A stretch of 64,000 nt of DNA, taken from positions 744,001 through 808,000 of the forward strand of contig NZ_NKFL01000004.1 of assembly GCF_002223055.1 (NCBI RefSeq), read 5' to 3'. The notes under the pieces were generated by a model. The model saw only the letters and a program-made list of their open reading frames with translations. It searched no databases and was not told where the DNA came from. This DNA comes from Burkholderia sp. HI2500 (GTDB lineage: Bacteria; Pseudomonadota; Gammaproteobacteria; Burkholderiales; Burkholderiaceae). Below are positions 10,735 through 55,873 of this stretch, in pieces. Numbering within the stretch: position 1 is the first letter of the stretch; every line of letters begins with the position of its first letter. The translations under genes were made by a program, and so were the position numbers.

Positions 10735-10861
10735 CGTTTTCGAAACATCGTTTCAAGAGTTTAACCGGCAACGATGTTTCGCGCAGTCTCTCAGGTTCTA
10801 GCACGGCCCTCGGAATGGCTAGAACTTTTTTAGCGCCACGGTCTCCGTGGCGCTTTTTTTT
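10735..10861 (+). ncRNA. putative small RNA with three stem-loops and tandem terminators
   Basis: Inferred from promoter and folding. Downstream of the TTGACT/AAGAAT promoter there are three hairpins. One has a 12-bp stem, CGAAACATCGTT (10741-10752) with its exact complement at 10770-10781. The second is GTTCTAGC (10795-10802) with GCTAGAAC (10818-10825), followed by six T. The third has a perfect 10-bp stem AGCGCCACGG (10832-10841), loop TCT, partner 10845-10854, followed by eight T. The last two look like back-to-back intrinsic terminators on the plus strand, and no plus-strand gene precedes them. Expected product is about 125 nt. The first stem also resembles the iclR palindromes, so part of it may be operator DNA instead. 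Confidence 0.55.
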
Positions 10862-39510: not shown

Positions 39511-41678
<2,168 letters not shown>

Positions 41679-41955
41679 AGCAGGGCACACGATACACTGG
41701 CTTGGCGGCGGTTTCAACCGGGAGAGGATCGGCTGCCCCGGTGCGGCCGCAGCATGGCGGGCGGTACGGTGGCCCGTCGAAATGGCAGCGCGCGTCGCTG
41801 CCGCATGGCCTCCCGGCTTGGCCGGCCGCGGCAAAGCGGTGCAGCATGACGCGCTTTCGCGCAACTTCAAAAAAAATTTTCGCAGCGGCTGTCATTTCCC
41901 GCGACGTCGTCCGTCTATTCGGCTCCTTAAACCCATGTTGTTTTGGAGAGATGTC
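41679..41955. promoter_or_regulatory. divergent thiC / MXKDX promoter region
   Basis: No gene supported. It holds the leftward thiC promoter upstream of the aptamer and the rightward promoter of the MXKDX gene. A strong ribosome site GGAGAG (41945-41950) precedes the ATG at 41956. A short AT-rich run near 41868-41882 is the only other feature. Confidence 0.5.
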
Positions 41956-52429: not shown

Positions 52430-53455
52430 TCAGGCCTTGCGCAATTGCAGGTCGGTGGCCGGCGGCGCCACGGTTGCGCCGTCGCGCACTACGTGCGGCA
52501 GGATCAGCGACGTGCGTTCGATCGCTGCGCCGCCGATGCTTTCGACGAGACGCTGCCATGCGTGGCGGCCGATGTCGCGGTTCGGCGTCGCGACGCTCGC
52601 GAGCGGCGGCGCGAGCAGTTCGCCGAGCGCGATCCCGTCGAAGCCGAGCACCGACAGGTCGTCGGGAATCGAGAAGCCCGCGCGGCGCAGGCCGCGCATC
52701 ACGACCATCGCGAGCAGGTCGTTGCTGCAGAAGAGGGCGGTCGGGCGCGTCGCGTGTGCGGTGAGATGCGCGAGCACCGCGTCGGGCAGCTCGGGCGCGT
52801 TGAAGTCGACTTCGACCGGCGGCAGCGTGGCGACGCCGATTTCGTCGAGGGCCTGCGCATAGCCGAGATGACGCTGGCGTGCGCGATCCGACGCGGCGAG
52901 CGAGCCGGCCAGCATCAGCACGCGGCGGTGGCCGCGCGCGGTCAGCAGCCGCACGCCGTCATACGCGGCACGGCGGTTGTCGACCGACACCGACGGGCGA
53001 CGCTGCGTGTCGTTGTGCATCAGCACGTAGTGCGGGCCGTCGTGGTCGAGCATGTCGAGCAGCGGGTGGGTATCCGCATCGGCGACGGTGAGGATCAGCC
53101 CTTCGACGCGCTGCTCGCGCAGCGTCTCGATCGCGTGGCGCTCGCGCGCCGCGTCGTATTCGGTCGTCATCAGGATCAGCTTGAAGCCGGCCGCGGTCGC
53201 GAGCTCGTCGATGCCTTGCAGGCAGTCGGCGAACACGGGGTTCGACAACGTCGGCACGACGACGCCGACGAGCCGCGTGCGCTCGCCGCGCAGTTGCCGG
53301 CCGAGCGGGCTCGGGCGGAACTGCAGTGTGTCGATCGCGGTGCGGATCGTTTGCAGCGTGGCGGGGCTGACGGTATGCGGGGCGTTGATCGCGCGCGAGA
53401 CGGTGGCGATCGAGAAGCCCGCGAGGGCAGCGACGTCCTTGATGGTCGAGGTCAT
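52430..53455 (-). CDS. LacI-family transcriptional regulator
   Basis: 341 residues. The N-terminal helix-turn-helix and hinge are TIKDVAALAGFSIATVSRAINAPHTVSPAT (about 3-35), followed by the periplasmic-binding-type effector domain to the end. Paired AAACGTTT palindromes lie right before its start. Regulation of the importer-phosphodiesterase operon and of itself is likely; the binding-protein gene starts 67 bases downstream in the same direction. The inducer is unknown, possibly the phosphodiester or a product. Confidence 0.92.
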   Translation of the reverse strand: MTSTIKDVAALAGFSIATVSRAINAPHTVSPATLQTIRTAIDTLQFRPSPLGRQLRGERTRLVGVVVPTLSNPVFADCLQGIDELATAAGFKLILMTTEYDAARERHAIETLREQRVEGLILTVADADTHPLLDMLDHDGPHYVLMHNDTQRRPSVSVDNRRAAYDGVRLLTARGHRRVLMLAGSLAASDRARQRHLGYAQALDEIGVATLPPVEVDFNAPELPDAVLAHLTAHATRPTALFCSNDLLAMVVMRGLRRAGFSIPDDLSVLGFDGIALGELLAPPLASVATPNRDIGRHAWQRLVESIGGAAIERTSLILPHVVRDGATVAPPATDLQLRKA

Positions 53456-53505: not shown

Positions 53506-53751
53506 GTGACTTCGCGATGACTTAGGCGACGCTTGTTTCGCGAAAAGCACGACACAAACGTCTGACGGATAGGGCCGTCGGACGACGCGGACTCGATTGT
53601 ATCGGGGATGCTGCGGCGCGGGAGGAAATCGTTGGGGGGCGGTGTGGGGGCGTCGACGACAACGGATGAATCCGTGGGGGCGCCTTGATGCGGCGCCGCG
53701 GAATAAGGGAACGCATGCGCAAGCAATGGTAGAATCGCGTCCGCCCCTCTT

Positions 53752-54087
53752 GCCGGGGTGATGAAATTGGTAAACATAGCGGACTTAAACGATTGAGTGC
53801 CCGGTCGGAAACGGTCGGTGCAGAACCCTTCAAATTCGGCGAAACCCCTGATGCGCGCATCGAGGCAACGCCGAGCCAAGCCTCGCGGCATCCGCGAGGA
53901 AGGTGTAGAGACTAGACGGGGGGCGCCTAAGGCGCATGGGCAGCAGGTAAAGCCCGCGCGCGACGGCGAAGGCATAGTCCAGCGCACGAACGGCATCGCG
54001 CACGCGACGCCGGCTTTGAAAAAAGCAGTGTGACGAAAATCCGCCGCCTTAACTGGCTTGCCGGTTCGAGTCCGGTCCCCGGCACCA
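53752..54087 (+). tRNA. tRNA-Leu(UAA), interrupted by a group I intron
   Basis: 5' exon 53752-53786, 3' exon 54036-54087. The acceptor stem GCCGGGG (53752-53758) pairs exactly with CCCCGGC (54077-54083), followed by A and an encoded CCA. The anticodon stem GCGGA (53779-53783) pairs with TCCGC; once spliced the loop reads CUUAAAA with anticodon UAA. The variable arm is long (CGCCTTAACTGGCTT), as in Leu tRNAs, and the T-loop is TTCGAGT. The intron splits the anticodon after its first base. A TAGAAT -10 sits at 53730-53735. The normal UUA-decoding tRNA-Leu is therefore expressed only if the intron is removed. Confidence 0.95.
53787..54035 (+). ncRNA. group I self-splicing intron in tRNA-Leu(UAA)
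   Basis: 249 nt, no ORF. P1: the exon end ACTT (53783-53786) pairs with GAGT (53795-53798), leaving the U-G wobble that marks a group I 5' splice site. The intron ends in G (54035) before the exon AAAATCC. Conserved elements are visible in order: P near TTCAAATTCGGCGAAACC, Q in CCGAGCCAAGCC, R in GAAGGTGTAGAGACTAGACGG, and S in AAGGCATAGTCCA. This resembles the subgroup IC3 introns of cyanobacterial tRNA-Leu(UAA) and of other proteobacterial tRNAs. It should excise with a guanosine cofactor. Confidence 0.92.
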
Positions 54088-54122: not shown

Positions 54123-54155
54123 GCCCGCGAGAAGCCCTGCGCTCGCGGGTTTTTT
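54123..54155 (+). terminator. intrinsic terminator after tRNA-Leu
   Basis: CCCGCGAG (54124-54131) pairs exactly with CTCGCGGG (54142-54149), followed by six T. Confidence 0.88.
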
Positions 54156-54229: not shown

Positions 54230-55873
54230 CTACGAATCACACCCCTCGCGCACGAAGGCCAGGTTGCGCGTGCGCGCCGTGTCGATGCGAAAGCGCGTCA
54301 CCTCGTGACCCGAGCGTTCCACCGTCAAGACGCCGTGCATGACGGCCATCTGACCGGCAGGGTCGAACGTGAAAATGTCGTCGGCCACCGGTTCCAGCCG
54401 GTAGCCGGCGCTGCCGGCGGCGCCGGTCATGGTGAGGGTGAGTTCACCGTTCGTCACGGCGATCGTCGCACGTGCCGCGGCATCGTGACCGTGATACGTG
54501 CCCGCCAGGCCCGCCGACGCATCGGAGAGCGACGGCGCGTGATCGGGCAAGCGCTCGAGCGTCTCCGCGTGACCGCAGTCCACCAGCTCGATCGCCGTCA
54601 CGCGAGCCGCCGCCGTCGGCGCTCGAGGTTTGATCAGCAGCGCTCTGCCTGTCCCGTCGTCAACCCGCAATCCAGCCTCCGTCTCGATGAGCGGTTGGGG
54701 CATCTGCTGGACGTTCTGAAAGCTCGCGTCGAGCTGCCCGTTGCGATCGCCGATCACGCAATACGTCCCGGACGCACGCGAGTGGTACCTGCCGAGCAAG
54801 GTTTCGTGCCCTGCCGTCGGCAACGGTGCGGCGGGCTTCGCGCCGAGGACGGCATCGCCCAGAACGATATCGACTATCTGCGTGGCCACTTCAACCGGAT
54901 TGACTGCCGCGCCGTTCGTGAGAATGATGACGTCCAGCGCGTGCCCGGCCACGGTCAACATCTGGCAAGATCCACCGAACACCCCGCCGGCATGATGCAG
55001 CACCTCCACGTCGCGATGCGGCGTGAGCATCAGCCCGAGCGCGTAGACGCCCTCCGCGCCGCTCGAATAGTGCGGTCGGGTCAGCATCTGGCGCCAGCTT
55101 GCTTCGCTGCCGACCCGCCTGGGGCCGCGCAGATGCGCGAGCCAGCGCAGCATGTCGTCGACCGTCGACACGATCCCGCCTTCGCCGAGCACTTCCCACG
55201 TCGGAAAGAGGCCGCGCATGAATCCGCCTTTTCCATCCGGCACATGCTGGGTCGCCATGCGCGGGCGAATGCGCATGTCGTCGGCGACCGATTCCGTGTC
55301 GACCATGCCCATCACGTCGAAGATGCGCGCCTTCAGAAAGGTCTCGAAGGGAATGCCGCTGACCCGCTCGATCGCGAGCGACAGCAGGTGATATCCGCCG
55401 TTGCAGTAGATCATCCGCTCGCCCGGCGGAAAATTGACGTCGCGTTGCCGGACTTGCGCCGCCAGCACGCCGCCACGCGGCAACGTCGCGACGCCTTGCG
55501 CGAGCAGCGTGAGATCGAGATAGCAGCGGTAGCCGCCCGTATGCGTCATCAACTGCCGCAGGCTGGGGTCGCCTGCGAGCAGCGGCAGCTCGGGCAGGTA
55601 CGTGCGGATCCCGGCGTCGACGTCGAGCTTGCCGTCTTCGGCGAGCAGGAGGGCGGCAAGGCACGTGAAGTGTTTGCTCGTCGAGCCGATGCGCAAGCGC
55701 GTGGCCGGCGTATTGGCGACGCCGTGTTCCAGGCTTGCCATGCCGAAGCCTCGTCGGTAGAGCACTTCGCCTCGATGCGCGACGGCCACGACGAGGCCGG
55801 GTTCATCGCTCTTGTTGAAGCGTTCGAAAAGGGTATCCAGTTGCTCGACGATGTCGCGCGATGCTTGAGTCAT
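54230..55873 (-). CDS. S12 serine hydrolase (D-aminopeptidase/MlrB/beta-lactamase-like)
   Basis: 547 residues. The serine catalytic tetrad motif is S64-T-S-K67; the second motif is Y156-C-N158; HAG at 294-296 replaces the K-T-G of beta-lactamases, as in D-aminopeptidase DAP. There is no signal peptide (MTQASRDIVEQLDTLFERF), so it should act in the cytoplasm. After residue ~350 two further beta-rich domains follow, like DAP domains B and C. It resembles the microcystin linear-peptide hydrolase MlrB. The gene starts 18 bases after the TonB receptor stop, in the same direction. A close paralogue is at 61143. Confidence 0.87.
   Translation of the reverse strand: MTQASRDIVEQLDTLFERFNKSDEPGLVVAVAHRGEVLYRRGFGMASLEHGVANTPATRLRIGSTSKHFTCLAALLLAEDGKLDVDAGIRTYLPELPLLAGDPSLRQLMTHTGGYRCYLDLTLLAQGVATLPRGGVLAAQVRQRDVNFPPGERMIYCNGGYHLLSLAIERVSGIPFETFLKARIFDVMGMVDTESVADDMRIRPRMATQHVPDGKGGFMRGLFPTWEVLGEGGIVSTVDDMLRWLAHLRGPRRVGSEASWRQMLTRPHYSSGAEGVYALGLMLTPHRDVEVLHHAGGVFGGSCQMLTVAGHALDVIILTNGAAVNPVEVATQIVDIVLGDAVLGAKPAAPLPTAGHETLLGRYHSRASGTYCVIGDRNGQLDASFQNVQQMPQPLIETEAGLRVDDGTGRALLIKPRAPTAAARVTAIELVDCGHAETLERLPDHAPSLSDASAGLAGTYHGHDAAARATIAVTNGELTLTMTGAAGSAGYRLEPVADDIFTFDPAGQMAVMHGVLTVERSGHEVTRFRIDTARTRNLAFVREGCDS

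What the first reader, a model, noticed from the sequence alone, without database searches (positions are those of the whole stretch)
53752..54087. Group I intron inside the anticodon of tRNA-Leu(UAA)
A 249-nt intron lies after the first anticodon base. Seen directly: acceptor and anticodon stems close across the gap, P1 with a U-G splice wobble, ωG, and P/Q/R/S elements. tRNA-Leu(UAA) introns are classic in cyanobacteria and plastids; other group I tRNA introns are known in proteobacteria (Azoarcus tRNA-Ile, Agrobacterium tRNA-Arg). Its presence in this lineage, at the same anticodon position and of a length similar to the cyanobacterial intron, raises the question of vertical or horizontal descent.
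Basis: partly seen in the sequence, partly recalled or inferred. Interest (0 to 1): 0.85.

Follow-up and report, generated by a model that had tools for sequence, protein, structure and literature searches.

The report
Ribozyme intron in tRNA-Leu(UAA) gene
The only gene found in this bacterium for the tRNA that reads the leucine codon UUA is split inside its anticodon by a 249-base RNA that should cut itself out; the insert is an inherited member of a known family of self-splicing introns that turns out to be widespread in bacteria.

Summary
Confirmed. Window 53752-54087 (+) is a tRNA-Leu(UAA) gene interrupted after U34 by a 249-nt group I intron (53787-54035). ARAGORN finds it only when introns are allowed; the joined exons are called tRNA-Leu(UAA). 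Rfam Intron_gpI matches below its cut-off (31.9 of 50 bits). The group I pairings hold in 91% of cells over 67 related introns, with double changes in 39 of 53 pairs, P3/P7 pseudoknot included. No other tRNA-Leu(UAA) gene was found in the genome, so splicing is probably essential. All 65 genus genomes searched carry it; the core varies as little as the exons (7%), the periphery at 49% of positions. In a sister genus 22 of 38 genomes searched have the intron; the 16 that lack it read exactly as the predicted spliced junction. Intron and neighbour-gene distances agree (r 0.89): vertical descent here, probably with losses. Deeper history is mobile: relatives sit at the same site in several phyla, four encode HNH-like proteins, others sit in other tRNA genes. 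A link to the cyanobacterial intron is neither shown nor excluded. Splicing was not observed. New member of a known kind.

The parts
53752..53786 (+). 5' exon of tRNA-Leu(UAA): acceptor strand to U34
53787..54035 (+). group I intron, 249 nt
54036..54087 (+). 3' exon: A35-A36 to CCA end
53783..53798 (+). P1: exon ACUU 53783-53786 with guide GAGU 53795-53798; U34 opposite G53795 (U-G)
   Evidence: sequence; GAG of the guide invariant in 67 introns
53801..53818 (+). P2 with GAAA loop
   Evidence: helix 1, 89.6% of cells paired
53826..53923 (+). P3 (53826-53831 with 53918-53923)
   Evidence: helix 2, 99.8% paired, 4 of 6 pairs with double changes
53836..53874 (+). P4 (53836-53839 with 53871-53874)
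   Evidence: helix 3, 99.6%
53847..53865 (+). P5
   Evidence: helix 4, 75.3%, the weakest helix
53875..53904 (+). P6 and P6a
   Evidence: helices 5 and 6, 100% and 83.7%
53832..53844 (+). P element
53903..53919 (+). R element GUGUAGAGACUAGACGG
53970..53980 (+). S element AGGCAUAGUCC
53910..53979 (+). P7 (53910-53914 with 53975-53979), pseudoknot with P3; G-C at its first pair
   Evidence: helix 7, 99.7%, 3 of 5 pairs with double changes
53924..53968 (+). P8 (53924-53927 with 53965-53968)
   Evidence: helix 8, 99.3%
53984..54031 (+). P9.0 (53984-53987 with 54028-54031)
   Evidence: helix 9, 88.4%
54013..54026 (+). P9
   Evidence: helix 10, 90.3%
54035..54035 (+). terminal (omega) G
   Evidence: invariant in 67 introns
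53730..53735 (+). possible -10 box TAGAAT
   Evidence: inference: in 26 of 40 relatives (L102-L141) the conserved stretch starts at 53708-53727, before the gene; no sigma-70 match by scan
54124..54155 (+). possible terminator: 8-bp GC stem (by eye) and T run
   Evidence: sequence; the scan finds an inner 5-bp stem, no more than shuffles give

Best explanation
A tRNA-Leu(UAA) gene, the only one found in the genome, carries a small group I intron, most like subgroup IC3, between U34 and A35. By the established group I mechanism the precursor folds so that anticodon-loop exon ACUU pairs with the internal guide GAGU (P1); a guanosine held in P7 attacks after U34; the freed U34 then attacks after the terminal G, joining U34 to A35 and releasing 249 nt. 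Shown here: anatomy, conserved pairing, exact empty sites in relatives, presence in every genus genome searched, no other UAA tRNA found. Inferred: that splicing happens, is self-catalysed, and is needed to read UUA. The intron has been inherited vertically in this genus and its sister genus, probably with losses; it is too short to hold an endonuclease gene and is probably no longer mobile by itself.
For: ARAGORN gene and insert. Rfam E 2.9e-6. Pair counts on 67 introns: 91.1% paired, 39 of 53 pairs with double changes, 0 of 500 shuffles as high, slid controls 33-43%. In 40 loci of the genus (39 genomes, G035 twice): exons vary at 6 of 87 positions, core at 5 of 71, rest at 87 of 178. 65 of 65 genus genomes have a full-length match. 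Own genome: 60 tRNA hits, 59 of them called by ARAGORN: Leu CAA, CAG x3, UAG, GAG x2, no other UAA. 16 of 16 intron-minus genes of the sister genus have the junction CGGACTTAAAATCCG. Mantel r 0.89 between neighbour-gene and intron distances, n = 28, 0 of 9999 permutations as high. A relative in tRNA-Arg(CCU) of Bartonella was shown to splice in vivo and self-splice in vitro (PMC7717549, passages seen).
Against: Rfam score is below the curated cut-off. No transcript evidence. Own assembly is a draft of 27 contigs, and one RF00005 hit (L080, 37.8 bits) was not called by ARAGORN. Only 1 of 459 leucine codons in ten window ORFs is TTA, so demand for this tRNA may be small. Free folding of the precursor is not clearly better than shuffles.
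Confidence: 0.95

Rival explanations
1. The intron was acquired by this lineage directly from cyanobacteria (or an ancestor shared only with them).
For: Same gene, same site, similar length; forcing the 17 Burkholderiaceae type-A introns and 5 cyanobacterial introns into one clade costs no likelihood (AU p 0.486; this group was named after the tree was seen).
Against: The free tree puts the cyanobacterial introns on the other side of a split supported 98/95, near alphaproteobacterial and Bacteroidota introns, on a long branch. Several other phyla hold introns at this site.
Confidence: 0.12
2. The insert is a decayed, non-splicing element and the gene is a pseudogene.
For: No transcript data; few UUA codons in ten window ORFs.
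Against: Core as conserved as exons; no other tRNA-Leu(UAA) found; present in 65 of 65 genus genomes.
Confidence: 0.02
3. The sister genus gained the intron more than once instead of losing it.
For: The neighbour-gene tree needs 3 changes and cannot by itself tell gain from loss; its root rests on one long outgroup row and many of its deep forks are weak.
Against: The outgroup row and the whole genus carry it; intron and neighbour-gene distances agree closely; one intron-minus clade of three rows lies among intron-plus rows.
Confidence: 0.2

Closest known systems
[quoted passage not shown]
   Same: Same gene, same site after U34, 200-300 nt, same P2-P9 plan and elements (cyanobacterial rows).
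   Different: P3, P8 and P9.0 letters differ; placed on a separate long branch, though a joint clade is not rejected.
tRNA-Leu-TAA introns of gammaproteobacteria (Thiomargarita and a Beggiatoaceae genome: PMC4853749, passages seen; a Pseudomonas isolate, Vepritskiy 2002, recalled, paper not held)
   Same: Same gene interrupted by a putative group I intron in proteobacteria.
   Different: Different lineage; the Thiomargarita paper says it did not determine structure or type of its tRNA introns.
tRNA-Arg(CCU) introns of alphaproteobacteria (Agrobacterium; Bartonella BbgpI, PMC7717549, passages seen)
   Same: Small tRNA group I intron in the anticodon loop, missed by tRNA finders.
   Different: In another tRNA, after the anticodon in the Arg(CCU) loci; splicing shown there by experiment.
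tRNA-Ile2(CAU) introns of Azoarcus (recalled), Acidovorax and Burkholderia (tRNAscan-SE 2.0, PMC8450103, passages seen)
   Same: Group I intron in a tRNA anticodon loop, also in this genus (L064, L065).
   Different: Other tRNA, other site; seen in 2 of 65 genus genomes by the search with this gene as query, which may miss others.

Membership tests
Group I intron | P3-P7 pseudoknotted core with P4, P6, P8 | tested here: met
   P3 99.8%, P4 99.6%, P6 100%, P7 99.7%, P8 99.3% of cells paired, with double changes in each of these helices
Group I intron | 5' exon ends in U opposite G of the internal guide | tested here: met
   (GAG of the guide invariant)
Group I intron | last intron base G | tested here: met
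   invariant in 67 introns
Group I intron | G-C pair in P7 for the guanosine site | tested here: met
   pair 220-332, GC in 67 of 67; that this pair is the guanosine site is recalled
Group I intron | curated Rfam cut-off for RF00028 | tested here: not met
   31.9 of 50 bits, E 2.9e-6; a tool threshold rather than a biological feature
Group I intron | guanosine-started self-splicing | not testable with these tools
   needs RNA chemistry
Subgroup IC3 | tRNA location, small size, GAAA loops in P2 and P9 docking to P8 and P5 | tested here: inconclusive
   location, size and P2 loop met in the window; the window P9 loop reads UGAAAA, with GAAA in most relatives; docking is recalled, no subgroup model was available
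tRNA-Leu(UAA) intron family | insertion between U34 and A35 of tRNA-Leu(UAA) | tested here: met
tRNA-Leu(UAA) intron family | single common origin with the cyanobacterial introns | tested here: inconclusive
   all 72 tRNA-Leu(UAA) rows as one clade rejected (AU p 6e-6); window group plus cyanobacteria not rejected (p 0.486)

The most novel reading that the evidence does not exclude
The Burkholderiaceae intron is the settled, vertically inherited branch of a pan-bacterial mobile lineage of small tRNA introns that aims at anticodon loops: after U34 in Leu(UAA), Ser(UGA), Thr(UGU) and one Arg(UCU), after C34 in Leu(CAA) (a C-G pair where group I introns have U-G), and at other loop positions in Arg(CCU), Arg(UCU) and Ile2(CAU). 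It spreads partly by HNH homing endonucleases coded inside some relatives and partly by carriage of whole interrupted tRNA genes on conjugative plasmids, and is lost cleanly where selection allows. Some sites (Thr, the U34 Arg) are my reading of the printed exons, where ARAGORN placed the cut a base off or named another tRNA.
Probability: 0.55. Interest if true: 0.75.

Novelty: new member of a known kind. Interest (0 to 1): 0.6.

Why it matters
A decoding RNA that is probably essential appears, through a whole genus, to depend on a ribozyme, and default tRNA and Rfam scans miss it. The genus with its sister genus offers a natural set of intron-plus and exactly intron-minus genes at one locus, so loss, dependence on UUA codons and descent become testable. 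The wider survey suggests that the classic cyanobacterial tRNA-Leu intron is one branch of a larger bacterial family, which bears on the view that it is an ancient cyanobacterial relic.

Tried and rejected
Rejected: pseudogene (core conservation); chance resemblance; recent gain in this species (65 of 65 genus genomes). Led nowhere: free folding z-score; sigma-70 promoter scan; phage collection, no match to the gene; 24 kb of the window against plasmids to name the species (partial matches only, the eight rows shown being Caballeronia, Cupriavidus and Mycetohabitans). The genus name Burkholderia rests on the RF02871 match and on kin, not on a named record: one same-family genus has the coordinates of Mycetohabitans and Candidatus Vallotia records.

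Genome counts with the model use Infernal's stricter filters. Which tRNA is hit was counted by hand from ARAGORN output with a regex that found 19 of the 22 tRNA-Leu(UAA) genomes; two more (G326, G381) align over both exons of a tRNA-Leu query but were not called by ARAGORN, so 22 is a lower bound. Trees of 150 columns are weak: 52 of 96 inner branches were under 80. Of 119 tRNA-Leu introns in hand 67 were aligned (near copies and the four HNH-bearing ones left out); for the covariance model 8 long ones and 9 more were dropped, leaving 50. The neighbour-gene tree lacks four intron-plus sister-genus genomes, three without the neighbour beside the gene and one not used. L066 repeats genome G035 of L048.

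Full report
What is there. The gene runs from 53752 to 54087 on the + strand. Default ARAGORN finds no tRNA in the window; with introns allowed it finds tRNA-Leu(taa) with a 249-nt insert, and the joined exons give a cloverleaf with 7-bp acceptor stem, variable arm, anticodon loop CUUAAAA and CCA end. The insert lies between U34 and A35. Rfam RF00028 matches at 31.9 bits, below its cut-off of 50, which is why a default scan misses it. The gene stands between a LacI-family regulator (52430-53455, -) and a beta-lactamase-family protein (54230-55873, -).

Structure. I aligned 67 tRNA-Leu introns and, having seen this and an earlier alignment, wrote P2, P3, P4, P5, P6, P6a, P7, P8, P9.0 and P9 on the window sequence. 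The counts: 91.1% of 3419 cells paired, 39 of 53 pairs with changes on both sides, no shuffle of 500 as high on any measure, and 33-43% paired when partners are slid. The structure was derived from one of the rows, which favours it on cells paired; the double changes are the stronger evidence. Two core types differ by paired changes in P7 (GACUA with UAGUC, and GAGCA with UGCUC). P5 is the weakest helix (75.3%).

Selection and need. In 40 loci of the genus (39 genomes) the exons vary at 6 of 87 positions, the core at 5 of 71, the rest of the intron at 87 of 178. The own genome has 60 tRNA hits; ARAGORN called 59 of them, L080 being the exception, and no other is Leu(UAA). A search with the whole gene found only itself and tRNA-Leu(CAA). 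That UUA can be read only by a UAA anticodon is established knowledge. TTA is 1 of 459 leucine codons in ten window ORFs.

Descent. All 65 genus genomes searched match over the full gene. In 299 genomes of the family the pattern is patchy. Of 38 sister-genus (g20) genomes searched, 22 have the intron and 16 lack it (my tally). In 13 of the 16 the gene lies beside the same LacI-family regulator as in the window, in the other three 2-4 kb from it. The junction reads exactly as predicted in 16 of 16, and in one genome of another genus (L140). A tree of the neighbour gene needs 3 changes of state against 13.4 in shuffles; gain and loss cannot be told apart on it with certainty. Neighbour and intron distances correlate, r 0.89, n 28.

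Wider family. A pattern scan of named genomes gave 42 real tRNA-Leu introns among 80 readable loci: 28 proteobacterial, 6 cyanobacterial, 4 Bacteroidota, 2 Acidobacteriota, 1 Eremiobacterota, 1 unassigned (record titles). With my covariance model, 41 of 398 genomes of the phylum and 47 of 300 of the order have a tRNA-type core; at least 22 of the 398 have it in tRNA-Leu(UAA). Others sit in Arg(CCU), Ile2(CAU), Leu(CAA), Ser(UGA), Thr(UGU) and Arg(UCU). Four introns of 691-712 nt hold frames of 154-163 aa with HNH matches; three pass a Pfam cut-off, the fourth (L204) is below it.

Tree. The window group is one side of a branch (support 70/75, not strong) among mostly beta- and gammaproteobacterial introns; cyanobacterial introns fall elsewhere on a long branch. 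Holding window group and cyanobacteria together is not rejected (p 0.486); holding all 72 tRNA-Leu(UAA) introns together is rejected (p 6e-6), and all tRNA-Leu introns together at p 0.012; long branches are in play. So introns have probably moved between tRNA genes, but the oldest steps stay open.

Literature. Library searches for group I introns with tRNA-Leu, Burkholderia, Ralstonia and proteobacteria showed no report of this intron in Burkholderia in the listings or in the passages I opened; I read passages of eight papers, none in full, and the library lacks most subscription papers. The tRNAscan-SE 2.0 paper notes tRNA-Ile2 introns in Burkholderia and Acidovorax. [quoted passage not shown] A 2014 review names tRNA introns in cyanobacteria and a few alpha- and betaproteobacteria (PMC4033280). 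Hence: a new member of a known kind.

Noticed in passing
L400 2490-2787, L401 2490-2784, L402 1990-2287 (plasmid records): An unannotated gene that reads by eye as tRNA-Leu(UAA) with a 210-212 nt group I intron (ARAGORN names it tRNA-Stop(tta) with an insert; core 132-141 bits) lies near predicted AAC(3)-II resistance genes in L400 and L402. 1280 of 72,556 plasmid records match it, 1257 over at least 80%, and 635 of 5426 complete E. coli genomes, 624 over at least 80%. Nearest of 398 phylum genomes is 85% identical and outside the window's class. Described only.
   Followed up: partly
L131, L133, L134, L135, L138, L268, L279, L292, L327: Nine tRNA-Leu(CAA) genes interrupted after C34, so that a C-G pair stands where group I introns have U-G at the 5' splice site.
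   Followed up: partly
L062 459-743 and L139: tRNA-Thr(UGU) genes with a 208-209 nt group I intron, seen in one genome of the genus and one of the sister genus.
   Followed up: partly
L067 2040-2073, L140 10004-10053, L066 8060-8142: Second copies of the 3' end of the tRNA-Leu(UAA) gene: 1.2 and 7.9 kb downstream in L067 and L140, as if the gene were an integration site; in L066 6.8 kb upstream and with the end of the intron, unexplained.
   Followed up: partly
L295, L333, L351: tRNA-Ser(UGA) genes with a group I intron after U34 in genomes of the same order.
   Followed up: no
L152 6081-6219: A second intron core (85.9 bits) on the other strand near the tRNA-Leu intron; its host gene was not looked at.
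   Followed up: no
window 10784-10861 and 41567-41683: Rfam matches: Burkholderia sRNA ncS54 and a TPP riboswitch.
   Followed up: no
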